A stretch of 64,000 nt of DNA from Heterodera schachtii. Lineage: Eukaryota; Nematoda; Chromadorea; Rhabditida; Heteroderidae. Shown piece after piece: positions 9,746 to 55,176 of this stretch. The position numbers were made by a program, and so were the translations under genes. The DNA lies in the NCBI GenBank assembly GCA_023374025.1, contig SIJG01000001.1:2851787-2915786 (forward strand). The letters run 5' to 3'. Each line of letters begins with the position of its first letter. Within the stretch, counting starts at the first letter, position 1. The notes beneath the pieces were generated by a model. The model had not been told where the DNA came from. It saw only the letters and a list, made by a program, of their open reading frames with translations, and did not search any database.

Positions 9746-10084
9746 AAGTTTGGGTTCTAGTCGGTTTTACGCGTCCCATGACATTTTACACACCCAAACA
9801 ATTTACGCGCCCCATCATTCTAAGCCATTGTTCGAGTTGCTTGTGTATGAGTTGTCATGATATTTTAGGTTAATTACTGAATAGCAACAAAAAAAATATG
9901 TTTCCTCTTAGTTAGTGATGCACGGAATTCCGATTCCGAAAATTTTTTGAGCCTCGGAATTCCAATTTCCTAAAATTTGGGCTCTCGGAGTTCCATCCCG
10001 ACCATTGACACAAAATGTCATGGGACCGCGTAAAGTGTCATGGGACTCGTAAAACCGACTAGAATCAAACTTTGTAGAAAATAT
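9746..10084. mobile_element. Foldback element, unit TTTACGCGTCCCATGACA
   Basis: Two inverted arms share AAGTTTGRTTCTAGTCGG followed by copies of a unit close to TTTACGCGYCCCATGACA, left arm at 9746-9820, right arm at 10010-10084. The flanks share AAAATTAT (9738-9745 and 10085-10092), a probable 8-bp target duplication, though the AT-richness weakens it. The interior (9925-10005) holds CGGAATTCC repeats like those of the element at 17438-18134. Its right end is only 12 bp upstream of the peptidase start codon. Confidence 0.65.
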
Positions 10085-10096
10085 AAAATTATTTAT

Positions 10097-13000
10097 ATGA
10101 TGTCATTTACGGCCTTTTTTCTTATTATTGCATTGCCAATTCTATTTTCGGGAAATGAGCAAGATATGGAGGAAGAAACCGGATCGAGTAAGTTTATTGA
10201 TATAATATATTTTCTAGTCCGTGGGTAGCCCGGACAAAATTGTATTGTAATTGTCACAATCCTAATTAAGGTTCATCACACATTGAGAGAATGCTTGCAG
10301 AGTTGAAGCAATTGCTTTACGAAAAAGAAAAAGCATTACAAAACCAAATTACAAATGCAGTGTTTGCGGAGGAATTGCATCAAAAAAAGAGTATGTAAAT
10401 TTTCACTTTTTGGCCCTGCACGAGTTTGGTTCTTAACAAATATATTTCAATGTTCGAGTTTGCCCTTCATGGCTAATATATTTACTACCAATTCTTCTAA
10501 ATTTGTAGTCATGTCATACTGGTCCGATCGGGTTTTTATGATTCAAGGAACAAAGCTCAGAGGAACGGCAATTTTGTTAGACAACAAAAATTTCATTACC
10601 ACTGCGCACTTGGGGCTCGTCATGGAAGGACTTATGCGGTATGGCAACAGGGCGGGCTGAGTTATCATGCCGACTGCTGCGTTGTACATAACGCCATCGA
10701 GGACTTTGCTGTTTTACATTCGAAAGATGCATTTAACGCCGATTTACACATTGGAACGCTGACCAAAGGAGCAAATTTTTACCTAGTCGTATGTAAATAA
10801 TTGTGTATTAGTAGGTTACTCTTTATGCATGTTTTAAAAATCGGTCCCGTGGGCTTTTCATGTTTCATTCTGTCCTGTTCCAAATTTTCCCTGAAATTCG
10901 AGTCAACTCTAAAAAGCATTTAACTCTCATATTTAAGAAAAATGACAAAATCCAAACGACGGCATGCTGATGATTTGGCAAATACTTCTGCCAGCTCATC
11001 AGAGCAACAACAACAACAGTTCGCATCACTTTCCTCCAGAATAGGAAATCTCGAGAAATTGTTGCAACAACTTATAAAGGCTAATGACCCAGATAAAGAC
11101 AATGCCAATCCAATCGACCAATTAACTTTTCGCCTTGATAAGTTGGAACAATTAGTTGCTACTCTTGTTAAACAGTTTCCTAATTGTGAGACTGCAAATG
11201 TCCAAAATATGAATGGGCACAACAACGGAACAACCTCAGCCCCCCGAAACATTCCATGGGGTTGCCCCCCTCCATTTGGTCCATCCCAATTTACCCGCAT
11301 GATGAACGACGCCATCATCGACTCGGAAACGATCAAAGAAAAATCAATGCGCGCCGTGGTTGAACGTCTTCCGGAACACCTCAATGAATTGGACGTGGTG
11401 AAGCAAATTGCGGATGAATGTGGGTTGTTGGCTGAGATTGACCTCAAAAACGTGCACAGACACCCACGGATCGCGCGTGAAGGAAGCACCAGGCCAAGAA
11501 TAGTCAAAATTCCTTTTTCATCACAAAAATTCCGTAATTTATTTCTCTACAAATTTCGGTCCACCCTTTCCAAAATGCCTGTTATTCCGCATAATCTTAT
11601 TGCCCGCCGAGATATGACACATAATGAATTATCAATTCTGTATGACCTTCGTAAAAAGGCCTATGAGGCTAACCAAGCCGCCGGCATGTTTAAATACATT
11701 GTCGTCGACTTGGAGCTCAAAGCTCTTTCGAACCCTAAACCACTCAGGACAAGGGACTTATAGGGGTGCGCGAGCAAACCGCAAAAAACTATTTTAAATA
11801 CAAAAACAATTAAATGTCTACTTTTTAATGCTCGCTCGCTTCCTAATAAAATCCCTGACTTAAATTTTATAACACAAAATAAAAAACCCATTTTAGACCT
11901 AATTCTTTCAAACCCAAACCAATTAGTTTATGAAACGAATGTTATAGAAACTTTTTCAACTTCAGATCATCACATGATAGAATTTAAAATTAATGCGAGC
12001 TATTCGATCACCAAAAAAGAGAAAATTTTCATCAGAGAGTTTAAAAGAAATAATTTTCTGAGACTTAGCAATGAGATTCAGCAAAAACGAATTGACTTAC
12101 ATTTATTGAATTTATTTCATGTTGACGAGAAATATAATCTTCTCGCTAAAGAACTTTATAAATCCTTCGATAAATTTTTTCCTAAAAAAGCATTACGAAA
12201 AATTATAAAAAAAAAACTACCCACAAAAAATCAAAAAATTATACTCCGAAAAATTAAAAATACATAGGCTTATTAGAAAATACCCTGATCACGGACAAAT
12301 TAAAATAAAATACAAAATTTTAAGTAGGAATCTGAAAAGGGAATTAAAAAATATTAATGATAATAAAGAAAGCCAACTTGTCAATAAAGGCAATTTGGCT
12401 ATTTTTAAATACATCGGCAACAAATTTAATTCCGACAGAGAAATAAGATTGCTTTTCGATGACCAAGGCAGAATTTACACTGAGGATAGGCAGAAATGCA
12501 TGCTTTTTGGTAAAATATTTCAACAAAATTTTATGCAAAGAAATTGTAATATGAATTATCCCATTAATAGCAAAATAAATAGCCTTACAGATATTGAATT
12601 AAATGCTGCCTTAGTCTGGAAAGCACTTAGGAAGTTACCAAACAGAAACTCGACATCTCCAGACGGGTTACCTTATATATTGATTAAGCAATGCGCAGAT
12701 TTATTGGCACCTATCATAAGTGAACTCTTTCGAATAATTTTAGATTATGGGGAAATCCCAAACTTATGGCGTACATCTTTTATAATTCCAATTTATAAAA
12801 AAGGGGATAAATCGAATCCAAATAATTATCGTCCAATCTCTCTGACATGTACTTTATGTAGGGTTTTTGAACGACTATTAGCATGGCATATAATTAAATA
12901 TCTTGAGAAAAATAAAATTCTAACTGATGAACAATTTGGGTTTTTGAAATCCAGGTCGACCACCACACAGTTGTTGGTCTCCCTGGATTATTTCTATAAA

Positions 13001-15115
13001 TCAATAGAAAAGGGACAAAAAGTTGATATAGTATTTATAGATTTTGAAAAAGCTTTTGATTCAGTGCCAATAAATTTGTTAATTGTTAAACTTCAGAACA
13101 TAGGTATTTCTGGGAAAATACTGAAATTTCTTCAAAATTTTCTAACGTATAGATCATATAGAGTTAAAATTGGAGAGTATTATTCCGAAAGTTTTAGAAC
13201 TTATTCCGGTGTCCCACAGGGCAGTGTCCTCGGGCCTCTTCTTTTTTTGATTTTTATAAATGACCTTACTAATTTTATTCCGCCTGAAGTCGGAATTAAA
13301 TTGTATGCCGATGATGTTAAAATTTACATTTCGCATGATAATGACGCGAAAAGGGATTTACTCTCTTTAGCGTTGGCTAACTTAGCCAAATGGTCAAAAG
13401 ACAATGGCATAGCCATTGCGCATGAGAAATGCGCAGTATTATATTTAGGAAAAAATAATCCTAAACATGAGTATAAAATTGGCGAGAAAGTAATTTTAAG
13501 CGTAGATTGTGTCCGTGATCTGGGAGTTTTGGTTGATCAAAAGCTCTCATTTGGCATTCATATTTCAAAAATTTTAAAGGCGGCCTATTACAAGGCATAT
13601 CAAATTTTAAAAATATTAAAAACAAGGAATATCAGTACCTTAATACTAGCATATAAAAGCTATATCAGACCTCACCTCGAATACGCATCCGAAGTATGGA
13701 ATGTCCCCGTAAAAGAACCGAGTAAAAGAATAGAAAAGGTTCAAAAATATTTCACAAGAATCGTATACAAAAAATGTGGCCTCAAGGCGGCACCATATGA
13801 AAAAAGACTTGAAATTTGCAAATTGGAGAAATTAAGTATTCGAAGGTCGCTCACTGATATGAATATGACTTACAAAATAATTAGGGGCTTAACTCATTTA
13901 GACCCAAAAAAATATTTCGAATTTTCTTCAAGATCGCAACGAAAAACATTTAGGATTCAAAACAAAAGATTCAGTAATAAATCTCGGAATAATTTCTTTA
14001 TTCGAACAATTAATCCATGGAACTGCTTACCCAAAACAGTTATGGAAATATCAGGTTTAAATAAATTTAAAAATCTTACGAAAGAATTTTATACAAAAAA
14101 TAAGTCCTGAGTGGTGGTGGTTCATCTCATCTCATTTTTTAATTTTTATGTATGGTATGTATTGTGATATTGACTTGACTTTATTTCATTTTTTTTTTAC
14201 CTGTGTTCATTACTATGTTTTCCGCTATAAGTGCAAGTATATTTGCCTTGCGGTTTGCTCAATAAATAAATAAATAAATAAATATATTTCAATGTTCGAG
14301 TTTGCCCTTCATGGCTAATATATTTACTACCAATTCTTCTAAATTTGTAGTCATGTCATACTGGTCAGATCGGGTTTTTATGATTCAAGGAACAAAGCTC
14401 AGAGGAACGGCAATTTTGTTAGACAACAAAAATTTCATTACCACTGCGCACTTGGGGCTCGTCCATGGAAGGACTTATGCGGTATGGCAACAGGGCGGGC
14501 TGAGTTATCATGCCGACTGCTGCGTTGTACATAACGCCATCGAGGACTTTGCTGTTTTACATTCGAAAGATGCATTTAACGCCGATTTACACATTGGAAC
14601 GCTGACCAAAGGAGCAAATTTTTACCTAGTCGTATGTAAATAATTGTGTATTAGTAGGTTACTCTTTATGCATGTTTTAAAAATCGGTCCCGTGGGCTTT
14701 TCATGTTTCATTCTGTCCTGTTCCAAATTTTCCCTGAAATTCGAGTCAACTCTAAAAAGCATTTAACTCTCATATTTAAGAGTTACCCACTTGGTTCTGA
14801 AGTTCATGGTCCCCGTTTTTCCAAAGGAATAATCGGACAAATGGCAGAAAGAGAGCTAAGTGAGAAAAATATGTAATGATTATTATAAAATTTTGCTGTT
14901 TAGTAGGAACACCAGGCAGCAACCAAGGCAGTAGTGGTGGAGCCATAATCAATCTTGCCGGTGAATTATCCGGGATCTTGATTGGTTCAGACCTAAAATT
15001 GACTGTTGATGCGCCATTTTCAGATTGGATCCAATCTCTGTTCGAAATAAGACACGTTAAAATATTGGATATAAATTATATTTTCAAAGTCAATTTACAA
15101 TCTGCTTTCCAATAA
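10097..15115 (+). CDS. Secreted trypsin-fold serine peptidase, 260 aa, interrupted by a LINE
   Basis: Exons 10097-10187, 10271-10390, 14351-14631, 14781-14859, 14904-15115; phases agree. Residues 1-18 are a hydrophobic signal peptide; exon 2 encodes a charged amphipathic helix, probably a short coiled coil; exons 3-5 encode a chymotrypsin-fold domain. Candidate triad: His in ITTAHLGLVHG, Asp in IEDFAVL, Ser in GSNQGSSGGAI. The motifs resemble HtrA-like or general trypsin-like peptidase domains more than classic trypsin (no TAAHC or GDSGG). Exon 3 exists twice because of the LINE's target duplication. The upstream copy (10509 onward) has a 1-bp deletion that shifts the frame; the downstream copy is intact. 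A full protein therefore needs splicing from exon 2 across the LINE to 14351. Substrate unknown; the signal peptide suggests secretion. Confidence 0.8.
10438..10937 (+). repeat. Upstream copy of the ~500-bp target-site duplication (frameshifted exon 3)
   Basis: This segment is repeated at 14280-14780 with only two visible differences: C/A in the codon after TACTGGT (about 10526) and a missing C in GGGGCTCGTC-ATGG (about 10621). It starts inside intron 2, contains all of exon 3 with both splice sites, and ends exactly at the intron-3 acceptor (TTTAAG). The deletion truncates the reading frame, so this exon copy is dead unless skipped. Confidence 0.9.
10942..11763 (+). CDS. LINE ORF1 protein, 273 aa
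   Basis: An uninterrupted frame starting 5 bp inside the element. Residues about 20-80 contain a Gln-rich stretch and leucine heptads (LSSRIGNLEKLLQQLI; LDKLEQLVATL), a likely coiled coil for trimerisation. The C-terminal half is basic and resembles the RNA-binding, nucleic-acid-chaperone region of LINE ORF1p (ARRDMTHNELSILYDLRKKA). No CCHC knuckle is visible. ORF1p packages the LINE RNA. The intact frame contrasts with the damaged ORF2. Confidence 0.75.
   Translation: MTKSKRRHADDLANTSASSSEQQQQQFASLSSRIGNLEKLLQQLIKANDPDKDNANPIDQLTFRLDKLEQLVATLVKQFPNCETANVQNMNGHNNGTTSAPRNIPWGCPPPFGPSQFTRMMNDAIIDSETIKEKSMRAVVERLPEHLNELDVVKQIADECGLLAEIDLKNVHRHPRIAREGSTRPRIVKIPFSSQKFRNLFLYKFRSTLSKMPVIPHNLIARRDMTHNELSILYDLRKKAYEANQAAGMFKYIVVDLELKALSNPKPLRTRDL
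11812..14110 (+). pseudogene. LINE ORF2: endonuclease remnant plus reverse transcriptase, frameshifted
   Basis: From about 11812 the frame reads CLLFNARSLPNKIPDLNF, the N-terminal APE-endonuclease block, and then jumps to DLILSNPNQLV ... TSDHHMIEF, its C-terminal block: the middle of the nuclease is missing. A frame change occurs in A-rich sequence near 12235-12265. From 12395 one frame (571 aa) covers the reverse transcriptase with FIDFEKAFDSV, the VPQGSVLGPLLFLIFINDL block and the YADDVK catalytic motif, then the usual C-terminal region ending near 14110. The polymerase would be intact if expressed, but the protein as a whole is broken. Confidence 0.85.
14280..14780 (+). repeat. Downstream copy of the ~500-bp target-site duplication (intact exon 3)
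   Basis: Near-identical to 10438-10937. It carries the acceptor at 14350, the intact exon 14351-14631 and intron 3 up to its AG. Exon 4 follows immediately at 14781. Confidence 0.9.
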
Positions 15116-15575
15116 ATTGTAATTTGTTTAACCAAAGTTTTGTTCATTGTTATCTTTATTAATTTGAAAGTCTATTTCCACTTTATGAAAATGTGCTTCT
15201 TAAATTTTTAAATTTATTCGTAGAAACCACAAAACACCATTGCACACGGCGAGTCAATTTGGGCTCCCAGTACAAATAAGTATTTTTTATTTGGTAATCA
15301 CAACGCCAAAACTTTTCTAAACATAAATTTTTTGGATTTTCCCTTGTAAAAATAGAAGAGCCAATCTCGAGTTAAAAACTTAACTTTCACAAAATATACT
15401 TGGAATCACTAGAGAGGGTAATATGCCTATGCAAAATTTTAAGAAAATCTGTGCATAGAGAAAATTTTTTAGCATAGCAATTAATCTTTTTCCTGTTATG
15501 AGGTAAAAAATTTCATAATATCCATTCTAATAATTCGATGATGTACGGTAAACACGGTAGGGGAGGGTTCATTGC
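15116..15575. other. AT-rich 3' flank of the peptidase gene
   Basis: No ORF or array recognised. TTCATTGCC motifs begin near 15568 and recur at about 16000 and 16030, suggesting an older repeat into which the next element inserted. Confidence 0.4.
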
Positions 15576-15583
15576 CGCGGTTT

Positions 15584-15992
15584 GGACGACACCCAACTCG
15601 TACTAGGCCAACTCGTACTGCCCCAACTCGTACTGTTTTTTGACAAAAAATGGTCATAACTTTTGTCAAAGTCGACCAAATTAAATATTCTTGGTACCAT
15701 TCGGTAGCCCTTAATGTTCTCTATCTAACGACCAAGTTTCAAAAAATTCGATAAAGTTTGAAAAAAGTTATGCACGAAAACATTTTTTTACGATTTTTGG
15801 CCATAACTTTTTTGAAAAGCAATAAAATTTTCTTGTATTTTGCAGATAGATGGAGAACATTAAGACCTATCGAATGGTACCAAGAATGTTTAATTTGGTC
15901 GACTTTGACAAAAGTTATGACCATTTTTTTGTCGAAAAACAGTACGAGTTGGGGCAGTACGAGTTGGCCTAGTACGAGTTGGGTTTTTACCC
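15584..15992. mobile_element. Foldback element with CCAACTCGTACTG arrays
   Basis: Three copies of an AACTCGTACT unit on the left (15592-15641) face three inverted copies on the right (15942-15986). The interior is a long hairpin around a CCATAACTTTT / TTGGTACCATTCG core. The direct repeat CGCGGTTT flanks it at 15576-15583 and 15993-16000, a clean 8-bp target duplication. The outer ends are GGACGACACC and, inverted, GGGTAAAAACC. There is no coding capacity, so it must be mobilised in trans. Confidence 0.85.
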
Positions 15993-16177
15993 CGCGGTTT
16001 CATTGCCAGCGATTTTTTGCCGGGGAGGTTTCATTGCCAAAATGTTTTAATAATATTGTCGAATTAATATAATTAAATATCCTTTTTCGACATCTATTTA
16101 TGCTTTTTTGTTAACACGAAATTTTTTATTAATGAAAAAATTCTTAAAAGAAGAAATTGAAATTAGCACACAACATA

Positions 16178-16240: not shown

Positions 16241-17437
16241 AACTTAATTGTATTTGGAGCCCAAAATTGATTCGCCGTGTGCAGTCAAAACGTTGTAGGA
16301 ACAAAATTTTCATAAATTCATCAAATTTGTTTTCAGTAACAGATGGTAAGACATCCTTTCTGTAACATTGGTGTACTGCGAAAGTCCGATGATAACGCAC
16401 TGATGAATGGACAGTTAGCGTTAAAGGTTTTAAAATTAGAAAATAATTAGAGACCGGACTTTTAGGCACGAAAATTTCCCAAATAGGCACCTAAAATAGG
16501 CACGAAAAATGTGAAAAAAGGCATAAAAATGAACAAAACGTCAAAAAAGGCACGAAAAATTGGAAAAAGGCAGCAAAAATCAACATTTTTCTAGCAAAAA
16601 ATTTTCCAAAAGACTTTTTGCTCTTCAGGGCTAACTTTTTTTTCTCCTATGTTATATCAACTACAGAACCGGAGAAAAAGGAATAAATTTTTGATGTTCA
16701 AATTTCAAAAACCAAGGTATAACTGTGAGTCCAACTGGTAAAATTTTTTTGGAAGTTGTAAGAAATATGATCAGAAAAATTGCAAGAAATTTCCATTTTT
16801 TTTGAAAAATAAGATAAATTGGCAATGTTTTACAATTATGTATTTAATTTGGGTTTTTAATAGGGTTAGATGGGCACCGGGTATTTGGGCAAAACCGGGC
16901 TCGGGTATTAAAAAACTGAGCGTGCGGGTCGGGTACCCGGGCTCGCCTAAATTTTTTAATGAAAATCTGCTAAAATTATAGTCATAATTCTCAATTTGAT
17001 CAAAAAAAAATAACAATATTAATTAAGGGGTGTGAAATTATCGCACTTTATTTCGGCGCTCACATGTGCCCGCGGTGTCATGAGTTCATGCCGGTACTCA
17101 AACAATTTTACAATCAGGTTGGATTGGCGATTTTCGATTTGTGGCATTCATGAAAAATGGGGGTCCCGTATTCTCGTTTATTACAGACTGTTGAGAAATT
17201 ATAGGTTCAAAAATTGAAGACACGTAACTTTTTATAGGGCAAGAAAAAATATGAAAAAATTCACGCCAATTTCCGAGATTAGTCACAAACCAATGCAATA
17301 TCAAAAACCAGAAGGCTTCGGTTCCACTTTCTCTGAATAGTATAGGTATATCGGTAAGTGTACATGGTAGCCCACTTTTTTTGAAAAACAAAAATTGAAA
17401 TTTTTCTTTTTCAAAAAAGGGGGCCTACCATGTACAC
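16241..17437. other. Repeat mosaic
   Basis: Contains an orphan end TAGAGACCGG at 16448 followed by AGGCACGAAAA units, an orphan TAGGGTTAGATGGGCAC end at about 16862 followed by CGGGTA units, and an inverted repeat arm at 17340-17435 (GGTATATCGGTA / TACCATGTACAC). No gene seen. Confidence 0.5.
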
Positions 17438-18134
17438 CAGGGATGGCACGGAATTCTGATTTCCGACATTTTTGGGGTCGGAATTCCGATTTCCGAAAAA
17501 ATTTTGGACGTCGGAATTCCGACTTCCTATTTCCGAAATTTTTGATAAAGGTCGGAAATTTTTTTTTTAATTTTTTTCAAAAAATTAACAATTTTTTACA
17601 GTTTTTGTTAATAAATTGCACTGAAATTTTCAGAAAAATTTCCCGGCGGCGCCTATCGGCACTGCCGGACCCTAAAAATAATAGTTTTCTTGAGAAATTT
17701 TTGAACTCAAAATCGCTAATGGTCATTTTTTGGACAAAATTTGTTAACAATTTGCATTAAAAATCAGAAAAATTTCCCCGGCGGCGCCTATCGGCAGCGC
17801 CGGATTCCTCCCCCGCCATGTTTTCAAAAATTTTGAAAAAACGCACCGCAAAAAAAGGTAAAATTTTTGATGAAAATCATAGAATAATTTTCTTAAAACA
17901 AAAATGTATTTAATAGATCAAAAAAGTTTTGAATCACCTTTTACTTGGTTAAGAATTTAAAATTTAGCCTATTAAGATATTTAGAAATTTTTTTATTATA
18001 TTTTATGTTTTTTGAAAAATTTCCGACTTCCGAATTCCGACGTTTTTGGGGTCGGAATTCCGACTTCCGAAAATTTTTTGTGCCTCGGAATTCCGATTTC
18101 CGAAAATTTTTGGGGCCTCGGAATGCCATCCCTG
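17438..18134. mobile_element. hAT-type MITE with CGGAATTCCGATTTCCG arrays
   Basis: The ends are CAGGGATGGCA and its inverse TGCCATCCCTG, the classic hAT terminus, and the flanks are the 8-bp direct repeat ATGTACAC (17430-17437, 18135-18142). Just inside each end lie three to four copies of a unit of the form TCGGAATTCCGATTTCCGAAAATTTTTGG. The middle contains two GGCGGCGCCTATCGGC motifs. There is no transposase. Confidence 0.9.
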
Positions 18135-21254: not shown

Positions 21255-22110
21255 AGTGAAGCGTGACCGGGAATTTTGGGCAAAACCGGGACCGGGACCT
21301 GAGAAGCCGGGACTGGGACCTCGGTTTTTGTCCGGGACCGTGAACGGGGACCGGGACGAACCGGGAATTTGGTAATACTGTGCTTTGTTCCCCCCCACCC
21401 CTTTTTCGAAAATAATTTTCTAAAATTTAATGTCATAAAAACAAGTTTCAGGGGTTTTCGAGGTCGCTGATGAGTTTTCTGGCCGGAGAATACAGTTCTG
21501 ACACCCATTTCTACCAAAATCGAACAGCGAACCCGGACTCGAACAAAAACTCAAAATTTAATTTTCGACAAAATTCAAAATATTAGGCTTAAGCTTAGGC
21601 CTAGGCTTCATCTTAGGCTTAGTGGGCTTAGGCTTAAGGGTTCTTTTCGGTTTTGTGACCCCCCCCTGAAATTTTCAAATAAAAACTCACTTCTGGGGTA
21701 ATTTGGGGCGCTGATCACGAATATGACATTTATTTTTCAAAATTCCGAATCTCGAACCCGAATTCGAAAAAAAAATTCTAAATTCATCAATTACAAGGAA
21801 AACCTATTTCAAGGGGTTTTCGAGGTCGCTGAAAACGATTATGACATCCATTTTGACCTAATTTAAAATGAAAATAAAATAAAACATAATCTTGAATTTC
21901 AAAATCATTTTTATTGAAAAGAAGGAATTCAAATTAAAAGCACAAAATTATCCAGATTTTTCCCAATTTTTAGAGCTTTTTTGCGACATAAATTAACCGG
22001 GACTTTTTGGCTGGGAAAAGCGGAAAAAACACGGGAATTTCCCGGTCAAAATTGGTCAAAACCTGGGACTTCGGTGCTCAGTTGTCCGTGTTTTGGTCCC
22101 AGTCCCGTTG
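21255..22110. repeat. Inverted-repeat region with ACCGGGAC units
   Basis: The left side (21262-21375) has repeated ACCGGGAC/CCGGGACC units, the right side (21990-22110) the inverted or degenerate counterpart (CGGGACTTTTTGG, CCCAGTCCCG). Between lie two copies of the GGGGTCGCTGATCAC palindrome family and a short GGCTTAGG run (21585-21640). No target duplication was found, so the boundaries are approximate. Confidence 0.5.
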
Positions 22111-22335: not shown

Positions 22336-22424
22336 TTTTACGCCTAAGGAAATAACCGCTGACCAACAATGTCCAAGCCTCGAAATGTCCAAGTCACGAA
22401 ATGTCCATAAGGGTAAAAAAACAC

Positions 22425-23710
22425 CGTACCAGGTGTTTTCGACAGTGATTGGTTTCGACAGTAGTTGATTTCGACAGTAATTTTTAATTAATTTCTACAT
22501 GATTTATTGTATACATGAATTAATAGGCTCCATGACATTTCGCCAACTGGACATTTCGCCAACTAAGCCAAATTCGGACGTTTCGCCAACTAACCATAAT
22601 TCTGACATTTCGCCAACTGACATTTCGCCAACTTAACATCTCGCCAATTGACATCTCGCCAACTGAACATGTCGCCAACTAAGCCAAATTCGGACGTCTC
22701 GCCAACTCATCCAAAAAATGACATTTCGCCAACTAATTTTGCCATCTACTCTAAAATTGTTTTTTTCTCTAGAATAATAGTATAGTTTAATATAATGTGT
22801 ATCTATGAAAAAACAGGGCCCTCAGTGATTTTCCTGCTTATCATATCACTTATCAATTCATCGCAGTGACTGTATTTGATGAGACTCAGAATCCCTACGT
22901 ATCATCGTGCCTGGCAAAAAAAAAACAACTCATTCGGTTCTGTTCTGACATGAAATGTACAAAGGATTCTGATTCTCTGACCCAAGAAATAGAAAATTCA
23001 CTGCTCTGAATTGTTAAGAGAGCAGATATACATTTATATAATTTTTATTATCATTAAATCAATATAGACTAAAAAATTTGGTTATAGTTTAGTTGGCGAA
23101 ATGTCAATTGGCAAAACGTCCGAATCTGGCTTAGTTGGCGAAACGTCCGAATTTGGCTTAGTTGGCGAAATGTCACTTTTTGGGTGAGTTGGCGAAACGC
23201 CCGAATTTGGCTTAGTTGGCGAGATGTCAGTTGGCGAAATGTCAGTTGGCGAGATGTCCAGTTGGCGAAATGTCGGTACACCGAATTAATATTAATATAC
23301 AATTTGCATATACAAAATTTATAATTGAAGTAAGTAATAAAAAATAAGACTTGTATGATTTTTTTGCCAAAAATTTATCATTTTCACTTTTTCTATACAA
23401 ATATCTCCTGCTGGAATGTAGTCAAAAATACAACAAATCTATTAGATAAGATTCTCGAATCGTGTGGGAAAATCTGGTAATTAATGCCGGGTTTGACTGC
23501 CAAAATCAAACCTGCATGCTCTTAAGCAAGAATTCGAAAATCTCGAACCCCTTGCAATGTATAAGAGCCATGTTCTTATCATTTGAATTGTTAAAATTTA
23601 ACGAGATTATGTCATATAGAAAAATTTTAAAAAATAAGCTTTACTGTCGAAATCAATCACTGTCGAAACCAACACTGTCGAGATCACCACTGTCGAAAAC
23701 TAACAGCACC
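22425..23710. mobile_element. Middle element B (TTTCGACAGT arrays), nested in C
   Basis: Three TTTCGACAGT units on the left (22435-22481) and four inverted ACTGTCGAAA-type units on the right (23643-23699). The direct 8-bp repeat AAAAACAC flanks it (22417-22424, 23711-23718). Element A sits inside. Confidence 0.85.
22526..23282. mobile_element. Inner element A (ACATTTCGCCAACT arrays), nested in B
   Basis: About eight units near ACATTTCGCCAACT, some extended by AAGCCAAATTCGGACG, on the left (22533-22735), and the same number inverted on the right (23088-23275). The 8- to 9-bp direct repeat GAATTAATA flanks it (22517-22525, 23283-23291). The central 350 bp is AT-rich and non-coding. Confidence 0.9.
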
Positions 23711-24804
23711 AAAAACACGAGTCTATAGCAGTTCGTACAATGGCAATTCGTACAAATGCGTTTTGTACAATAGGCAGTTCGTACAATGGGACCTTCGTAT
23801 TTTTTTTTAATTGCTAACTTAGAAAACCCTGGACCCAAATATAATATAAAATACCAAAATAAACTAAGAATTCTATACAAGATGGCGACCAAAGTTCGAA
23901 CAAGTTTTTGGTTCCCAAGTGATCCGAATCTGTCTCTAGACAAACTTCACATAGTGAAAATGAATAAATTTATTAACATTAACAAAAAAAATCATTACGG
24001 AACATGGACAATGAACCATCAAAATTCTCGAAATCCTTCAATTTTGCTGAATGTCCGGTACTTTTTCACTTTACGCAACATAAAATTTTTTTAAATTATT
24101 TTTTTTGGAGTTTTCGGGGTCGCTGATCACCAATATGACATTCATTTCAAACAATTCCGAAACCGGACCCGAATTCAAACAAAAAATCGAAAATTTAATT
24201 TTTCGCATTTTTCGTCTAAAAATGGTTTAATGACCTTTTATTGCATGAGTGGATAGCTTTCAGTTTGTTTCCATGTTTTTAAGTCGTTTTTAGACAAAAA
24301 ATGAGAAATTGGAAACGAAAAATGAGAAATTGGAAAAATTAAATTTTCGATTTTTTGTTCGAATTCGGGTCCGGGTTTCGGAATTGTTCGAAATGAATGT
24401 TATATTCGTGATCAGCGACCACGAACGCCGTCACCAGGCCATGGATTTATTTCACCATTGTTGTTGCATTTCGCGTCTGCCAAAATTTTCATAATTACGC
24501 CGTCCTGCATGGTGTATCGCTTTTGTCACATGCGAATGAAATGGCGAGCAGCTCAGATCGGGCAGCGTCCATCGTCAGTCGGTGCTTTCATTGATTTCAC
24601 AGATGAAGTCCGGGAGGGCAGGGTGGTGGCAGAGACCTTTCTAAAATATAATATTTTTTAATTTAACCCATTAAATGCAGATGGGTTACCTCCAGTCCAT
24701 TGTTTGTATGAGCGAGGGCAAATGTGGCCTGCGAGTGCATGTTTGGACATTTCGAGGCTTGGACATTTCAAAGCTTGGACACTTTGTAGGGGCGCCGAAA
24801 TAAC

Positions 24805-26027
24805 AATTTAAAAGCAAAATTTCGCAAAAAGGAGCATGCGAAGACGGAGCTTCGTAATAAGCGACCTAGAAAGCCTTTGGAAATAATTTTTCATGATTTT
24901 TGAAAAAAAAATTTTCAAAAAGGTCGGGTACCAACGGCAATATTAATTACTAGGGCTGGGAATTTAAGTCAAATGACTTTTTTGTGACTCTAAATGGCCT
25001 TAAAATGACTAAAAAAGTGTTCTAAACTTTGTTTGAAGCTCCATCATGCATTTTTGTGACTTTTTTTTATTACTTTTTTACACTTTTTGGGCTTTTTACA
25101 TATGACTTTTTTGAGTTTTGCGACTTTTTTCGTGATTTTTTTGACTTTTTGAGGCAAAATTTGATTTTAGTGAAGAAAATATCGAAAAACACAAAGAAAA
25201 TTCCGAAAAATATTCAATCGATAAAAAGGCAATGAAACCTGAATGAATTTTTTCTTAATTGTTGGAAGAATCTCTTTTATGCCTATTTAGGTACCTGTTT
25301 ATAAAATTAATTGCCTAAAAATATAATCAAAATATTATTCTATAAATTATTAAAATGAATTCCAATCCCGCAGCGGGATCCTTTGAAATTTCCGGTCTCT
25401 AATCTAAACCTTTGCCTTTTTAGGCTTAATTTTGTACGGATTTTTTTTTTTAAATGATAAAATATGTGTCAATTAAAAAAATATGAGGAATCATATTTTG
25501 TCGATAGTAAACCCATGAGATAATGAGTATGTAAATAGCGGCAATCATCATAAGTCATAAGTAGAGACCGGATTTTGAGGCATATGCCTTTTTTTTTTGC
25601 TAATTTGCTACGGCCTAATTATGCATGAAAAACGAGTTTTTAACTTAGTTTGAAGCTTCTAGCTTGAACTTTTTGGTGCCTTTTTTTGCGATTTTGGTGC
25701 TTTTCGGGGGTTTGGTAAAAGACTTTTCCACCAGTGTAAAATATAAACTAAAGAAAATATTTCCAAAGGTCAGGAGCGGTCTCATGTTGTCTTAGAGGGG
25801 GTACCACCCCTTTTTTGTTTTTCACATCACTTTTTTCTGCACGCTTTTACCAAATTTTTGGGAAAGAAGGGGGTCCGGCGGTGCCGATAGGCGCCGCCGG
25901 TAAAAATTTTGTAATTTTAATGCTATTTGTTAACATAACAGATTTGTTCACAAAAAAAGTTGATTTTGGAATTACTAGGCTCAATTTGTTAACGGATTTT
26001 CTTTAAAAAATGATAAATAGGGCTGTG
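24805..26027. other. Repeat mosaic
   Basis: Orphan element ends occur at about 24952 (TAGGGCTGGGAATTTAAG with AAATGACT units), 25396 (CCGGTCTCTA) and 25562 (TAGAGACCGGATTTTGAGGCA). A GGCGGTGCCGATAGGCGCCGCCGG motif lies at 25876. No gene recognised. Confidence 0.5.
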
Positions 26028-26634
26028 ACTTTTAGTGACCAAAAATCTTGAAATAGTTAACTAAAATAGTGAGCAAAAATGCCAAAATAGTGACAAAATA
26101 GTGACAAAAAGTCCAAAATAATGACGAATAGTGACATAATTTTTAGCCAAAATTAAGCAAAAATAATTTTTATTCACTGATTGCAGTTGCAAATGAGGTA
26201 CATTTCCTTTCTAATATTTTCTCAGCAAAAATTGACATTTTTTAAACCAAAAATTTTGCCAAGAAAAAGGGAAATTTTTTATGAAAATTATCCAATTCTT
26301 AGTGGTATTTTTTGAAAAATTTTTTAGGTCAATTCTTAGGGGTGCCTTTTTTGAAAAAAAATTTTAGGTCGATTCTTAGGGGTGTATTTTTCGTTTTTAT
26401 TGCATTTTTGTTAAGGAATTTTCCAAAAAATGCCAAAAAAGTGAAAAAATAGTGACAAAACGCCAAAATAGTGACTTTTAACTATTTTAGTGACGAAACG
26501 CCAAAATAGTGATTTCTAGTGACCAATAGTTACATCAGAATCGAAAAATTTCAACGCAGAAATGCGTTTTTTGAGCTCCATTCTTCAAAACAATTGAGCA
26601 AAAAAATAGTTAAAACCTAAAAGTCACAGCCCTA
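26028..26634. mobile_element. hAT-like MITE with AATAGTGACAAAA arrays
   Basis: Inverted ends TAGGGCTGTGACTTTTAG / CTAAAAGTCACAGCCCTA, flanked by the direct 8-bp repeat ATGATAAA (26020-26027, 26635-26642). The outer 100 bp on each side are runs of AAAATAGTGAC units. No ORF. Confidence 0.9.
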
Positions 26635-27012: not shown

Positions 27013-27715
27013 TAGGGTTGTAAATTATATGGACTAATAAACGCTAAATATGGACATAAAATAGGGACTAAAAAAGCCCGAAACATTGACTAAAAAGCCC
27101 AAAAATGGCCAAATATAGACCAAAATATGGACTAAAAAATGCCAAAATATATGGTGTAAACCCTCAAAAATCCCAAAAAAAGTGTGTATATTTAATATTT
27201 GCTTAAATAAACTTAAAAAGTACAATAAACAACAAAAAATGGATTTAAAACTTAAAAATGCAAATTTTTTTAATTGTTGTTCGTTGTATAAAAAATACCT
27301 CCAAGATTGCCAAAATTTCGAAAAAATTCTCATTAAAAAAAGAAATGTTCGCAAAAAAATGGCAAAAATTTTTATTAAAAATGCCAAAATGACGACGAAA
27401 ATTCAAATTTTTCGTATTTTTGTGGGTGTAATTTTTAAAAAATTTCCAAAAAGTCTATCTTTAGGGGTGTATTTTTCGCTTTTTTTTTTTTGCATTTTTC
27501 TTGTGAAAATTTTCTAAAAATGGCCAAAATATGGACTAAAAACACAAAAATGGCGAAATATGGATTTATTCCCGAAAACCCCAAAAATATGGATTTATAT
27601 GGACTAAAAACCTTCACAAAAGCAAAATTTTAACGCAGAAATGCTATTTTTGAGCCCCTTTCTTCATAGCATATGCGTAGAAAAAATATGTTAATCCATA
27701 TAATTTACAACCCTA
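27013..27715. mobile_element. hAT-like MITE with ATATGGACTAAAAA arrays
   Basis: Inverted ends TAGGGTTGTAAATTATATGG and its complement, flanked by the direct 8-bp repeat CATATAAC (27005-27012, 27716-27723). Arrays of ATATGGACTAAAAA-type units lie inside both ends. The interior shares an AGGGGTGTATTTTTCG motif with the element at 26028. Confidence 0.9.
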
Positions 27716-28260
27716 CATATAACTTATGCCATTTTCTTTCAAAGTACCGTGCTAATGCAATGTTGAGCAATGGTGCTTACCAGGGGTGTTGCAAAGGGAA
27801 AAATAAAAAGCGAAAGGCGAAAAGCGAAACCAAAATAAAAAGCGAAAAGGCGAAAGCGAAATGCCTAAAAAAGCGAAATAGCGAAAGGCGAAAAGGCGAA
27901 ATTTTTTCCAACAATTAGATGAATTTAAAAGACTAAAAAATTCACATTTTATTGTGCTTAACTGTTTTTTATCGTAGATTTTTGTATAGAAATTTATAAA
28001 ACGCATATTTCATTTTTTGAAAATCGAGACTCAAAAAATTTACAATGTTAGCGGTACGCTTTTCAAAATGGGGGCGGCGCCGCCGGGAAAAATTTTGAAA
28101 ATTTGGATGGCTCTGTTAACAGATTTGTCCAAAAAATGATAGAGTTTTGCAATTTTGAGAGAATTTTTTTTTTGAATATTACTATTTTTGGCCCGGCGAT
28201 GCCGATAGGTAGCGCCAGGCGAATTTTAAAATTAAAAAAAAATTAAATTAAAAAAGAAAT

Positions 28261-28333
28261 CGTCAACCGGCATCGAACTCTTGACAGAAAAGAATGTCAA
28301 GGTTGCTGCACTAACCACTAAACCAGACTACAG
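28261..28333 (-). repeat. tRNA-like segment inside element J
   Basis: Minus strand: TGGTTTAGTGGTTAGTGC (A box) and GAGTTCGATGCC (B-box type) at tRNA-like spacing. It is repeated, truncated, at 36360-36400. A tRNA-derived SINE head captured by the element is the simplest reading. Confidence 0.6.
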
Positions 28334-29200
28334 GGCGCTATGTAATTTCGACACTGGGTAAATTCGACACTGAGTATTTTCGACACTAAGTAATTTCGAC
28401 ACTACGTTTTCGATATAGAGAAATTTCGACACTGAACTATTTCAAAAACTTTCACTGTTTTCCAGCATTTTTGACACTGGACCATTTCGACAGTGAGTAA
28501 ATTCGACACTATTGAGAATTTTTAAAAATAATAAGAAATTTTAAAAGTTGTTAGTATTTAGGTATGATAAATTTTCCTATTTCATTTTCTAATTCGTACT
28601 TTTTAAAAGGTTAGGTTGGTATAACTGAGTAAAATGTCAACCCCAGTGTCAGTGTTAGACAAAATAACTCATAATGCCAAATAGTGATATTTTGGGGCGC
28701 TAATTCAAAAAAACTGAAACTGATCAGCCAGTGATCATTGCCTTTTTTGTATTGGTTGTTCTGATCATTCGAACTTGCGCATCTCCAATTAACAAAATAA
28801 TGTGGCTACAAATAGATTCAAACTCACAATTTTTTGATTGTCAAATTCTTTAGCACTCACTTCTTTTCCAAAAAATTAGTTAACAATTTTTTTTGGTTAG
28901 TTGGAGATGCGCAATTTTTACCGTTTTACTCAGTTATACCAACCTAACCTTTTAAAAAGTACGAATTAGAAAATGAAATAGGACAACTTTCAAAATTTCT
29001 TATTATTTTTAAAAATTCTCAATAGTGTCGAATTTACTCACTGTCGAAATGGTCCAGTGTCGAAAATGCTGGAAAACAGTGAAAGTTTTTGAAATAGTTC
29101 AGTGTCGAAATTTCTCTATGTCGAAAACGTAATGTAGAAATTACTTAGTGTCGAAAATACTCAGTGTCGAATTTACCCAGTGTCGAAATTACCAGCCACG
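28334..29200. mobile_element. Long-armed foldback element with TTTCGACACTG arrays, nested in J
   Basis: Arms of about 300 bp (28346-28645 and 28925-29195) are near-perfect inverted copies with a unit close to TTTCGACACTGAGTA repeated seven to nine times in the outer half. The inner half of each arm is unique sequence. The direct 8-bp repeat GACTACAG flanks it (28326-28333, 29201-29208). The loop (28803-28860) holds a further degenerate A/B-box remnant. Confidence 0.9.
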
Positions 29201-29474
29201 GACTACAGATAAACAAAACCAAATTTTACTTTATTTCATAAAAATTTGGTAAAAACTAAGTTAATTTTTTGCTTTTTCTCCCACGAAAATGCATTTGTTT
29301 ATTTTAAAAACCCAATCTTTAGGGGTGTACTTTTATTTCGCTTTTTAGCAAAAAAGCGAAAAGGCGAAAGCGAAAGGCCCCAAAAAGCGAAATAGCGAAA
29401 AGCGAAACTTGCAACAGCCCTGGTGCTTACCTATTGTGGTCCCTAATCAACTTTTATGTTTTGGTTCAAAATCA

Positions 29475-29828: not shown

Positions 29829-31993
<2,165 letters not shown>

Positions 31994-34484: not shown

Positions 34485-34944
34485 ACGGACTCGCTCAGTT
34501 CGGCATCACAGTTCGGCCCTCACGGTTCGGCCGTCACGATTCGGCCGGCACGGTTCGGCCCCAGCGTGTTTTTCCACGATAGCTTTTTATTTATAATCCA
34601 AATCCAATAATCTTGGTATCTTTCGAAAGCTCTTAACATGCTTTATTAGCCTTGCTAAAAAACAAAAAAATTTTAAGCCTGGAAAAAATTTATTAAGAAA
34701 AAACTTCAAAAATTTCGACTTTTTCGAAATTTTCATGTATAACTTTTTTGGTAATTGTCTAATCGCTAAGCAATAGCTTAGAAAAAGCTTCTAAACATGT
34801 TAAGCTTTCGAATGATACCAACAATGTTGGATTTGGATTACAAAGAAAAAAGTTATAGAAAGTTATATTGGAAAAACACGCTGGGGCCGAACCGTGCCGG
34901 CCGAATCGTACGGCCGAACCGTGCCGGCCGAACTGAGGTAAACC
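34485..34944. mobile_element. Foldback element with CACGGTTCGGCC arrays
   Basis: Units CACGGTTCGGCC (left, about 34495-34562) and inverted GGCCGAACCGTG (right, 34887-34938). The hairpin core has TTGGTATC(A)TTTCGAAAGC and CATGTTAAGCTTTCGAATG. Flanks GAGACTAC (34477-34484) and GAGAATAC (34945-34952) match at 7 of 8 positions. Confidence 0.8.
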
Positions 34945-35138
34945 GAGAATACTTGTACCAAAGCCAAATCTCACAAATGGACGCCTCTTGGTATGTAACG
35001 AATCCGAAAATCTCGGTTTCTAATGTTTAAATCAGATCGAATTTTATTCCCGGGATTGGAAACAACCCGGAGCGAGAGAACTGCAATGGAGCCAAAATTT
35101 CGTGTTTTTTTTCCCGCGGCACCATGGATGAGTTGTCT

Positions 35139-36015: not shown

Positions 36016-36119
36016 CGGTAAAGTACTACCATTAAAATAAATATCATATTCGTGATCAGCGACGTTGGAAACCCCAATTTTGGAATTTTTTTGAGGGGGG
36101 GCGACATAACACGTAAGTA

Positions 36120-36520: not shown

Positions 36521-37168
36521 CGTTTTATACCCCACCGTACATATGTACAGTATGACATATATTTATTTTCATCTTTCTTTTTTTATAATGTACTAATTCG
36601 GTACTTTTCTAGTTTGAAGGTCGATCATTTATATGAATATAATAAGTGGCTTAACCAGGGTTAGGATCGGACAAACTCTCTTTCCAAGGACATAAGGGGA
36701 AAATTCCATTAAATTCAAGGGCATTTAAAATTTTTATCATATGCGATAAAAATGATTAAATTTTATACAAATGGTTTATATTTTTCCATTAAGGACGAAT
36801 CCGAACCCTGGGCTTAACTCATTACCTAGACTCTAAAATATTTCTTTTATGAAAATGTATTACCTAAACTGACTCAAAAAAATCTGAACAAGTATGAAGT
36901 GAGAGATGGTCAAATTTTGACCAAAAAAGTCTGAAAAAATTTTTTCTATAGTAACTCAATTGAAATCGGAAAATTTCTCAAAAAATTCTTATGGGGTTAG
37001 AAAATTTTAGAACAAAGGAATGGGATAGGCCTATCTGAAAGAGCACAAAATGTTCTACAATATGCAAATGACCGCAATTTCCTACGACTTTTCCCCGTTG
37101 AGGATGATGTTGATGGGCACTCAATTCGATGTTGATCATTTCTACTGTAAAATGCAACTTAAGAAATA

Positions 37169-50968: not shown

Positions 50969-51356
50969 GGGGACTAGGTCGTTTCGGCGCCGCCGTTTCG
51001 GCGCCAGCCCTTGTTTTTGGACTATAACTTTTTTATTTGTCAACCAAATCTAACAATTTTGGTATCATTCTAAAGCCCTTCACAAGCCTTATTAAACCTA
51101 CAAAAAACCAAAAAAAATTTTATCCTGTAAAAAAGTATAAAGAAAAAACTTCCAAAATTTTGGCTTTTTTGTAATTTCATGTTATAACTTTTTTGGTAAT
51201 TGTCTAATCACGAAGCAATAGCTTAGAAAAAGCTTCTAAACATGTTAAGCTTTCGAATGATACCAACAATATTGGATTTGGATGACAAAGAAAAAAGTTT
51301 CTAGTCTCAAAACTTGGGCTGGCGCCGAAACGGCGGCGCCGAAACGATACAGACCC
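50969..51356. mobile_element. Foldback element with TTTCGGCGCC arrays
   Basis: Left end GGGGACTAGGTCGTTTCGGCGCC, two units on each side, right end GGCGCCGAAACGATACAGACCC. Direct 8-bp repeat TTTTTTGT flanks it (50961-50968, 51357-51364). The hairpin core (TTGGTATCATTC ... GCTTTCGAATGATACC) is nearly the same as in 34485 and 54779. It ends 130 bp upstream of the clathrin/MSP start codon, between two divergent genes. Confidence 0.88.
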
Positions 51357-51486
51357 TTTTTTGTTGTCAGTCCAGGAAAAAAAATGCAGGTGAAAAGCAT
51401 ATTGTTATCGTCATTTTTTGCCCATTTGGAGACGCTTTCTCGGCATACCTTCTGTTTATTTTTATTTATTATTTTTAGGTAAAATT

Positions 51487-54335: not shown

Positions 54336-54778
54336 GTCGGAACAAATGCTGCTGCTTTTTGCGAGGGCTAACGATCAGAACACTTCGAATACAATATCTT
54401 CCATACGTAGTACTAACCTTTTTATATTTCGGAAGGCATTCTCAAAATTATTATTTCTTTATTTTTCTCGTTTTTAATATTTCATTTTATATACTTTTTT
54501 TTTGTTTGTTTTTTATCGTCCACGCGTATCACAGTCAGTTTGAACATTGTGTAAATTGAGTTCACTGTTTTATACTAATAAAAATATTTGTTTTGATTTG
54601 AGTGACGAATTTGATTGAAAATTGCTAAAAAATATGCTTAGACTTATTTTTTTTTAATTTGTCAAAAAACAAACAAATATATCAAATATATTTTGGAGGT
54701 GAGTTTCTAAGAAAATTTTTATTTCTTACAAATTAGAGGTGTAGTTTTTGTTTATGCACTTTTGCTATCGGAACCGAT

Positions 54779-55176
54779 CAGTTGGGCCGTCACGTTTGGG
54801 CCGGCACGGTTGGGCCCCAGCATGATTTTCCATGATAGCTTTTTTCTTTGACATCCAAATCCACATTGTTGGTATCATTCGAAAGCTCTTCACATGCTCT
54901 ATTAGCTTTACAAAAACGGAGCCTAGAAAAATTTTTATTAAGAAAAAACTTCAAAATTTCGAGTTTTTCGAAATTTTCATGTATAACTTTTTTGGTATTT
55001 GTCTAATCGCGAAGCAATAGCTTAGAAAAAGTTTCTAAACACATTAAGCTTTCGAATGATACCAACAATGTTGGATTTGGATGACAAAGAAAAAAGTTGT
55101 AGAAAGTTATAGTGGAAAACTATGCTGGGGCCCAACCGTGCCGGCCCAATCATGCCGGCCCAACTGAGGTAGAGCG
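54779..55176. mobile_element. Foldback element with CGGTTGGGCC(GGCA) arrays
   Basis: Left GTTGGGCCGTCACG / GGCACGGTTGGGCC units, inverted on the right (55126-55163). Direct 8-bp repeat TTTGCTAT flanks it (54771-54778, 55177-55184). The hairpin core is almost the same as in 34485 although the array unit differs (TTGGGCC against TTCGGCC). It ends about 310 bp before the zyg-8 start codon. Confidence 0.9.

What the first reader, a model, noticed from the sequence alone, without database searches (positions are those of the whole stretch)
9746..55176. A system of ~15 non-autonomous elements, each with its own short-unit 'barcode' arrays near both ends
Independent elements at 9746, 15584, 17438, 22357, 22425, 22526, 26028, 27013, 27781, 28334, 30798, 34485, 50969 and 54779 share one plan: 8-bp direct repeats outside, 10-20 bp of weakly matched end sequence, then an inverted pair of tandem arrays of a 10-30-bp unit, then a hairpin or AT-rich core. 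The unit differs in every case (AACTCGTACT, ACATTTCGCCAACT, TTTCGACAGT, TTTCGACACTG, TTTCGGCGCC, CACGGTTCGGCC, CGGTTGGGCC, ATATGGACTAAAAA, AATAGTGACAAAA, GCGAAAAGGCGAAA, CGGAATTCCGATTTCCG and others). hAT transposases are known to bind short subterminal repeats (e.g. AAACGG in Ac). I infer that these arrays are expanded binding sites, each matched to a different transposase. The diversity in one 64-kb window would mean a large, fast-diverging set of DNA-binding specificities.
Basis: partly seen in the sequence, partly recalled or inferred. Interest (0 to 1): 0.9.

Follow-up and report, generated by a model that had tools for sequence, protein, structure and literature searches.

The report
Transposons with family-specific end barcodes
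This stretch of what is likely a nematode genome is crowded with small jumping genes of what look like two unrelated kinds, whose ends carry short repeated "barcodes"; several of the barcodes match those flanking enzyme-coding relatives elsewhere in the same genome, so each barcode is probably the address read by the DNA-binding finger of its own transposase.

Summary
The arrays are real but belong to two superfamilies. Nine listed elements are most likely non-autonomous Mutator-like (MULE, Tm1/Phantom-like); four (17438, 26018, 27013, 27781) look like hAT; 9746 is unresolved. In the same genome, 39 of 42 fetched MULE-transposase loci have a flanking array and 29 of 42 show a FLYWCH finger. 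By one detector, inverted array pairs flank 21 of 30 MULE loci and occur in 0 of 30 hAT loci. The 61 transposase-bearing loci with a readable unit hold 46 distinct units (22 clusters at two edits). Unit distance tracks transposase distance (Mantel r 0.64, p 1e-4). Seven of 11 window units match a transposase-bearing locus better than shuffled units do; 54769 is identical to L081/L094. Three elements with cores 81-89% identical carry three different units. FLYWCH residues 26-27 associate with unit positions 12-14, but the tree-aware test weakens under conservative coding. hAT loci have arrays downstream of the domain (24 of 30). Tm1 of Meloidogyne is a known one-unit relative; a many-barcode radiation with one core under several barcodes I did not find described. 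Binding is untested.

The parts
15584..15991 (.). MULE-type non-autonomous element, unit CCCAACTCGTACTGC, arrays 15592-15635 and 15940-15983, target duplication CCGCGGTTT
   Evidence: distant member of the hairpin-core family; no significant partner unit, so classed by anatomy
17438..18134 (.). hAT-type non-autonomous element, tips CAGGGATGGCA, unit with CGGAATTCCGATTTCCG, target duplication ATGTACAC
   Evidence: unit 548+451 exact genome matches, reversed control 0; same unit beside the hAT domain in L012, L013, L025
22357..24796 (.). MULE-type element, unit about CGAAATGTCCAAG, arrays 22368-22407 and 24743-24781, duplication GAAATAAC; hosts nested elements
   Evidence: unit match to transposase-bearing loci not significant, so classed by anatomy
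22425..23710 (.). MULE-type element (approximate ends), unit TTTCGACAGTAATTGA, arrays 22437-22482 and 23643-23698; interrupted by 22526
   Evidence: unit and sequence match to L058; no exact duplication found
22526..23282 (.). MULE-type element, unit GACATTTCGCCAACTG, duplication GAATTAATA (9 bp)
   Evidence: no significant partner unit, so classed by anatomy
26018..26634 (.). hAT-type non-autonomous element, tips TAGGGCTGTGACTTTTAG, unit near AAAATAGTGAC, duplication ATGATAAA
   Evidence: related copies in L040 and L078; no transposase-bearing partner found
27013..27715 (.). hAT-type non-autonomous element, tips TAGGGTTGTAAATTATATGGA, unit near AAATATGGACT, duplication CATATAAC; about 67% identical to 26018 over 421 bp
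   Evidence: 88% copy in L072
27781..29422 (.). hAT-type element, tips CAGGG(G/C)TGTTGCAA, units AAAGCG/AAAGGCG, duplication GTGCTTAC; hosts 28334
   Evidence: core 84% identical to 35140-36540; 40 scored copies without the 28334 insertion
28334..29200 (.). MULE-type element, unit GTAATTTCGACACTGA, duplication GACTACAG
   Evidence: empty site in 40 of 40 scored matches; unit matches L058
30798..31174 (.). MULE-type element, inward unit near AAACGTCGCCGGGC, duplication ATATAAAA
   Evidence: arrays resemble L057 and L060 but unit match p = 0.10, so classed by anatomy
34485..34950 (.). MULE-type hairpin-core element, unit GTTCGGCCCTCACG, arrays 34498-34561 and 34885-34933; ends approximate
   Evidence: unit of L100; 152+185 exact genome copies, control 0+0; 23 of 24 two-strand clusters inverted
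50969..51360 (.). MULE-type hairpin-core element, unit CGTTTCGGCGCCGC; ends approximate
   Evidence: (equally close to L093 and L059)
54769..55176 (.). MULE-type hairpin-core element, unit GTTGGGCCGGCACG, arrays 54781-54816 and 55129-55164, duplication TTTGCTAT
   Evidence: unit identical to that of L081 and L094; 84+88 exact genome copies, control 0+1; core in 40 scored copies at 94-100%
23728..23789 (+). one-armed array, unit GCAGTTCGTACAATG, identical to that of L091
9746..10080 (.). inverted arrays near TTTTACGCG(G)TCCCATGACA; ends and superfamily unresolved

Best explanation
Nine of the fourteen listed elements are most likely non-autonomous Mutator-like (MULE, Tm1/Phantom-like) elements and four are likely hAT elements, and their tandem arrays are probably multiple binding sites for the zinc finger of one particular transposase family, so that the array unit would act as the address deciding which enzyme moves the element. 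Shown here: MULE-transposase loci in the same genome are nearly always flanked by arrays, each family with its own unit; unit and transposase distances are correlated; and several window units match those of transposase-bearing loci. Also shown: elements with one shared hairpin core carry different units that resemble those of different transposase families. Inferred: the FLYWCH finger reads the unit, repeats give avidity, paired changes in finger and unit split one family into families that no longer cross-react, and non-autonomous elements are re-addressed when their arrays change while the core stays.
For: Array beside the transposase gene in 39 of 42 MULE loci L039-L080, the misses being L040, L044 and L078 (my reading); these loci were the 30 best-scoring hits plus 12 I picked of the other 65. 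Inverted pairs around the domain in 21 of the first 30 MULE loci and in 0 of 30 hAT loci of the same size, one detector. FLYWCH columns readable in 29 of 42 and MULE columns in 42 of 42; both domains in single open frames of L052 and L057. L052 protein: mean pLDDT 94.2, nearest solved fold the ISCth4 transposase. Symmetric duplications of 8 bp or more in 17 of 35 two-armed elements against a mispaired mean of 0.17. Mantel MULE distance versus unit distance r 0.64, p 1e-4, 30 representatives. Seven of 11 window units closer to a transposase-bearing locus than shuffled units, p <= 0.02; among the nine listed MULE-type elements this is five. Core/array decoupling: 34485, 50969 and 54769 share a core at 81-89% with different units; L072's one-armed copy has an 85% core but another unit than 54769, while L062's has a 63% core but nearly the same unit. 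Per-repeat counts: residue 27 K with C at unit position 14 in 204 of 217 repeats, non-K in 11 of 88; residue 26 D with G at position 13 in 74 of 75, A with C there in 76 of 77, H with T at position 12 in 125 of 129. A rule noted fitted 4 of 4 of the loci with 14-bp units and 15 of 16 testable loci. hAT: array 20-500 bp downstream of the domain in 24 of 30 loci, upstream in 4 of 30.
Against: No binding or mobilisation was tested. Arrays are common here (41 merged arrays in the 64-kb window) and no randomly chosen loci were fetched as a background, so single-arm arrays count for less than pairs. Descent alone gives part of the Mantel signal, and most predicted loci are close kin of the training set. 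The residue 27-position 14 co-change ranks first of 528 pairs as coded (p 1.7e-6 or 1.0e-4 depending on how ancestral states are resolved) and first in 29 of 40 bootstrap trees (worst rank 127). It falls to rank 7 (p 0.01) if three loci with half G, half C repeats are coded C, to rank 8 (p 0.03) on the catalytic tree so coded, and to rank 30 (p 0.065) if two-repeat arrays are also dropped. Residue 26 with positions 12-13 does not stand out in that scan (median p 0.03-0.05), and on the 35-locus tree one of two well-supported D/CG pairs shows no difference in the unit. L111 (N with CG) breaks the rule. For Tm1 one Meloidogyne protein (P0099: H, T) fits and another (P0104: G, K) does not. Units of 15584, 22357, 22526 and 30798 match no transposase-bearing locus significantly. 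L078 has FLYWCH and MULE but no array in 4 kb.
Confidence: 0.72

Rival explanations
1. The arrays are passengers: short TIR repeats expand by slippage and are homogenised within an element, and units differ between families only because the families are old; the FLYWCH finger does not read them.
For: A Mantel correlation is expected from descent alone; the co-change test weakens under conservative coding; one arm has grown to about 58 copies like a minisatellite (L049).
Against: Inverted array pairs surround 21 of 30 MULE domains and appear in 0 of 30 hAT loci by the same detector, and hAT loci have arrays of their own beside the domain; core and unit are uncoupled in the hairpin family; position-specific association with the finger. 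Closest precedent: the Galileo THAP domain binds TIR sites in vitro, with further sites in the tandem repeats (PMC3688188, abstract).
Confidence: 0.17
2. All the elements are hAT and each array serves a different hAT transposase.
For: hAT domains are abundant (at least 141 matches) and have arrays downstream in 24 of 30 loci; 17438 has a hAT partner.
Against: 14-16-bp units identical or near-identical to the window's flank FLYWCH-MULE genes; 9-bp duplications and weakly matched tips in several elements.
Confidence: 0.03
3. The arrays bind a host factor or form a promoter or silencing target, and their divergence is escape from the host rather than matching to a transposase.
For: Variation in MULE TIR length, and loss of TIRs, has been discussed as possible escape from host silencing (PMC6446971, passage; it concerns length, not unit sequence). 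Not tested here.
Against: Different units on one core resemble those of existing transposase families, which host escape alone does not predict.
Confidence: 0.08

Closest known systems
Tm1, Mutator/Foldback family of root-knot nematodes (PMC3169594; outline, passages, sections 6, 8, 9 and part 1 of 11 read)
   Same: FLYWCH plus MULE transposase, about 14-bp tandem Motif C in long composite TIRs, non-identical outer tips, 8-10-bp duplications, MITE-like majority; Motif C fits the register CGC-CG-ATT-CAGTAT of the 14-bp units here.
   Different: Tm1 is one family with one unit consensus per species (39 and 22 elements) and is described as senescent; here 46 distinct consensus units (22 clusters at two edits) occur in one genome, with copies of a core at 100% identity.
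Phantom MULEs (PMC6446971, passages)
   Same: FLYWCH finger in some, MULE domain, 8-10-bp duplications; a minisatellite reported in aphid members.
   Different: No unit-by-family matching described in the passages seen.
Galileo (P superfamily, Foldback-like; PMC3688188, abstract and section 2.5)
   Same: Transposase DNA-binding domain shown to bind sites in long repetitive TIRs, with weak or absent cross-binding between some subfamilies.
   Different: THAP domain and P-type transposase, another superfamily.
hAT subterminal repeats, e.g. Hermes bound by BED domains (PMC10368747, outline and abstract)
   Same: Array-like subterminal sites near transposon ends, as in the hAT elements here.
   Different: Here the repeats are tandem arrays that differ between the hAT loci seen.
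Drosophila FB / Rehavkus (FB recalled; Rehavkus row of a table in PMC6446971 seen)
   Same: FB: tandem-repeat TIRs; Rehavkus: 9-bp duplication and minisatellite noted, MULE outgroup.
   Different: Rehavkus is listed with a PHD finger; these have FLYWCH.

Membership tests
Tm1/Phantom-type FLYWCH-MULE (transposase-bearing partners) | FLYWCH and MULE domains in one transposase | tested here: met
   L052 and L057 by Pfam; FLYWCH columns in 29 of 42 loci, MULE columns in 42 of 42
Tm1/Phantom-type FLYWCH-MULE (transposase-bearing partners) | About 14-bp tandem repeats in both TIRs | tested here: met
   39 of 42 loci with an array of 14-26-bp units; 26 of 42 with two arms that I measured
Tm1/Phantom-type (window elements) | 8-10-bp target duplication | tested here: met
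   Six of nine window MULE-type elements exact at 8-9 bp: 15584, 22357, 22526, 28334, 30798, 54769; 22425, 34485 and 50969 not
Tm1/Phantom-type (window elements) | Tm1 outer motifs A1 CGGTTAA and A2 CCTACCC | tested here: not met
   Tips differ between the two ends as in Tm1, but these motifs are absent as such at the tips of the six bounded elements; hence 'Tm1-like', not Tm1
Tm1/Phantom-type (window elements) | Mobilised by a FLYWCH-MULE transposase | not testable with these tools
   Only unit similarity with transposase-bearing loci, five of nine elements
hAT | 8-bp duplication and hAT-type short tips | tested here: met
   17438, 26018, 27013, 27781 (tip consensus recalled)
hAT | Relative with Dimer_Tnp_hAT and the same array | tested here: inconclusive
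   Met for 17438 (L012, L013, L025); none found for the other three in the 30 loci
Rehavkus | PHD-finger MULE | tested here: not met
   FLYWCH found instead, no PHD in the ten reading frames scanned

The most novel reading that the evidence does not exclude
FLYWCH fingers read array units through a short residue-base code (residues 26-27 of the second strand against unit positions 12-14). Stepwise changes in that code have split one MULE lineage into dozens of mutually insulated lock-and-key families within a single genome, and hairpin MITEs hop between them by exchanging arrays while keeping their core. hAT elements in the same genome have built the same kind of addressing system independently.
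Probability: 0.38. Interest if true: 0.92.

Novelty: new variant of a known kind. Interest (0 to 1): 0.74.

Why it matters
How a transposase and its ends stay matched while families multiply, and how MITEs find a new helper, are questions usually studied one family at a time. This genome holds tens of natural finger-array pairs at graded distances, so binding specificity, cross-mobilisation and escape could be measured directly. It also offers a natural data set for the poorly known DNA-reading mode of FLYWCH domains.

Tried and rejected
A single hAT explanation was rejected for the 14-16-bp arrays after MULE loci were fetched. 9746 could not be bounded. The first-look rule for residue 26 (noted) was tested on new loci: of 20 fetched, 17 had finger and array, one (V, L102) lies outside the rule, and 15 of the other 16 fit; L111 misses; L103, L104 and L105 were dropped because no array was found, and L103 is also another finger type. 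Registers of the new units were assigned by me after seeing them. Treekit independent-pair tests never reached six well-supported pairs, so none is significant. In the 35-locus test L060 (ambiguous register), L074 (broken finger) and all 15-16-bp and longer classes were left out. The Tm1-A cross-genus prediction, registered, is inconclusive. A single-sequence PDB search of the finger found nothing useful; the profile found 2rpr. A search inside PMC12265568 for a FLYWCH motif gave no passage and one inside PMC12594988 gave one passage without a motif. PMC7593179 was useful only as a citation of Tm1. No random-locus background for single arrays was fetched. hAT unit-transposase correlation was not computed. 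Literature searches that showed me no description of such a multi-barcode system (listings, not full texts).
Full report
Setting. The window is G000:C1:2851787-2915786 of a 178.5-Mb, 356-contig eukaryotic genome. Named proteins nearest to the L062 transposase are from Meloidogyne, Heterodera and Globodera; for L052 the nearest named ones are from the firefly Photinus and from Meloidogyne. The finger of L094 looks the same as that of Heterodera trifolii proteins P0113 and P0124 in the columns shown. Loci with a MULE or FLYWCH domain are called transposase-bearing; whether any is active was not tested.

Observation. Tandem arrays in inverted pairs are real: 9 pairs in the window by a fixed detector, one of them a join of two neighbouring elements, and none in 20 Markov shuffles. 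Ten of 14 listed elements have exact 8-9-bp direct repeats at their ends. The insertion 28334 has an empty site: 40 of 40 scored genome matches (380 first-look candidates) to the joined flanks cross the junction.

Two superfamilies. Searches of the own genome gave at least 141 hAT-dimerisation matches (150 of 238 candidates scored), at least 95 MULE matches (150 of 158) and at least 93 FLYWCH matches (150 of 161). Around MULE domains the flanks hold inverted arrays of the same style as most window elements, with units that differ from family to family. One detector found inverted pairs around the domain in 21 of the 30 MULE loci L039-L068 (an A/T-rich pair in L040 not counted) and in none of the 30 hAT loci L009-L038, which are of about equal size. 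By my reading 39 of 42 MULE loci (L039-L080) have at least one flanking array; L040, L044 and L078 do not. Arrays are frequent in this genome (41 merged ones in the window), so the pairs carry more weight than single arms. FLYWCH columns are readable in 29 of 42. L052 has an open frame of 504 codons with both domains. Its predicted structure is confident, its best solved match is the ISCth4 transposase (its placing in the IS256 family is recalled), and a profile of its relatives finds the FLYWCH1 structure 2rpr. Around hAT domains arrays also occur: 20-500 bp downstream in 24 of 30 loci and upstream in 4 of 30; upstream lies within the gene and several of the 30 are copies of one another (L015-L019 for example), so this contrast is rough. 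The window element 17438 shares its unit with three of them, and CGGAATTCCGATTTCCG occurs 999 times in the genome against 0 for the reversed control.

Mobility. Of 35 two-armed elements (26 MULE loci, 9 window elements) 17 have a symmetric duplication of at least 8 bp; mispairing left and right flanks gives 0.17 on average, at most 2.3. The unit of 34485 occurs 337 times (control 0). In the first 100 listed places there are 49 clusters, 24 hold both strands, and 23 of these are inverted, the 24 spans being 284-497 bp. The core of 54769 has at least 40 copies at 94-100% identity, five of them at 100% including the window's own (40 of 2300 candidates scored), which suggests recent activity. Of the 13 such copies on contigs C1-C21, by my reading of the listings, 9 have the exact unit GTTGGGCCGGCACG within about 300 bp and none has GTTCGGCCCTCACG.

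Barcodes follow transposases. For 39 loci reduced to 30 representatives, distance between MULE domains and distance between units correlate (Mantel r 0.64, p 1e-4, 435 pairs); within the 14-bp class r is 0.59 (15 loci). Over all 39 loci mean unit distance rises from 0.08 in near-identical transposases (12 pairs) to 0.52 at 65-80% divergence (416 pairs), the level of shuffled units (0.50). Adding the loci gives 61 transposase-bearing loci with a unit: 46 distinct consensus units, 34 clusters at one edit, 22 at two.

Window elements and partners. Of 11 window units compared with all 61, seven are closer than shuffled units (p 0.003 to 0.02; 300 shuffles each): 22425 and 28334 (L058), 23728 (L091, identical), 34485 (L100), 50969 (L093 or L059, tied), 54769 (L081/L094, identical) and the array around 15584 (L048). 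Four are not: 15584, 22357, 22526, 30798; these four are called MULE-type by anatomy alone. L079, L087, L072, L062, L073 and L058 contain further elements, whole or one-armed, with related cores.

Core and barcode are uncoupled. Cores of 34485, 50969, 54769 and of the elements in L079, L087 and L072 are 77-89% identical, yet their units resemble those of L100, of L093 or L059, of L081/L094, and (L072) of L063/L099; the L079 unit is nearest to L093, and the L087 unit is of the same style but its match is not significant (p 0.08). The element in L062 has a core only 63% identical to 54769 but nearly its unit. This is what re-addressing of a MITE would leave behind; how arrays are exchanged is not shown.

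A possible reading code. In 35 loci with 14-bp units and a readable finger, residue 26 (numbered from the first Met of L052; inside predicted strand 21-28) and residue 27 associate with unit positions 12-14: D with CG, A and V with CC, H with T then A or C; K27 with C at position 14 (23 of 24 loci), other residues with T or G (11 of 11 as coded). The exception on residue 26 is L111, N with CG, while L062 is N with TA. Counting repeats with positions 12-14 left blind, K27 loci have C in 204 of 217 and others in 11 of 88; the three N27 loci are half G, half C. In an unbiased co-change scan the pair 27-14 ranks first of 528 (p 1.7e-6, 1.0e-4, the difference being random resolution of ancestral states). 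It also ranks first on a tree of catalytic columns (p 1.1e-4, 18 loci) and first in 29 of 40 bootstrap trees, falling as low as rank 127 in one; the best p in 30 shuffles of units was 4.4e-4. Coding the N27 loci as C lowers it to rank 7 (p 0.01), to rank 8 (p 0.03) on the catalytic tree, and dropping two-repeat arrays as well to rank 30 (p 0.065). Residue 26 does not stand out in that scan. I therefore treat the code as a lead, not a result. WRKY domains, relatives of FLYWCH, enter the major groove with a beta-sheet (PMC4350883, passages, which also doubt how close that kinship is), so a strand-borne code is plausible.

Known kin. Tm1 of Meloidogyne (PMC3169594) has the same architecture: FLYWCH-MULE, about 14-bp Motif C arrays, 8-10-bp duplications in 45 of 53, MITE-like members. 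Galileo shows in vitro that a transposase domain binds sites in repetitive TIRs with limited cross-binding between subfamilies (PMC3688188). What I did not find described in the listings of nine searches is a radiation of tens of units in one genome, one core under several units, or the finger-unit association. The library holds only open-licence papers.

Limits. The loci are the best-scoring hits plus picks of mine, not a random sample. Of 74 loci fetched for a MULE or FLYWCH domain, 13 gave no unit (3 of 42, 7 of the 12 half-elements, 3 of the 20 short pieces). No physical interaction was tested.

Noticed in passing
window 10435-10938 and 14277-14781, with ORF 12395-14110 between: A reverse-transcriptase ORF (PF00078) lies between two direct copies of about 505 bp that are 99.4% identical.
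   Followed up: partly
window 22357-24796, 27781-29422, 15561-16040: Nested insertions: 22526 in 22425 in 22357; 28334 in hAT 27781; 15584 in a CATTGCCGCGG array whose unit is that of L048.
   Followed up: yes
window 35140-36540: Partial relative of hAT 27781 (core 84%) that lacks a clear right array.
   Followed up: partly
window 16455-16600 and 24960-25160: One-armed arrays (AAATAGGCACC and TGACTTTTT types), possibly hAT remnants.
   Followed up: no
L049:1-927: One MULE arm grown to about 58 copies of a 16-bp unit, a minisatellite in the making.
   Followed up: no
window 29830-32000: GRB2/sem-5-like gene (recognised by eye, no search run) with element 30798 apparently in an intron.
   Followed up: no
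window 61898-62311 and 60058-60401: 21-bp minisatellite of about 20 copies within coding-looking ORFs, and a CCTCC array.
   Followed up: no
window 21583-21636: TTAGGC-like interstitial array, the nematode telomere unit (recalled).
   Followed up: no
P0113, P0072: FLYWCH or FLYWCH-MULE regions annotated in one protein with a transcription-initiation-factor name (Heterodera trifolii) or a MATH-domain name (Globodera rostochiensis): fused gene models or captured transposases.
   Followed up: no
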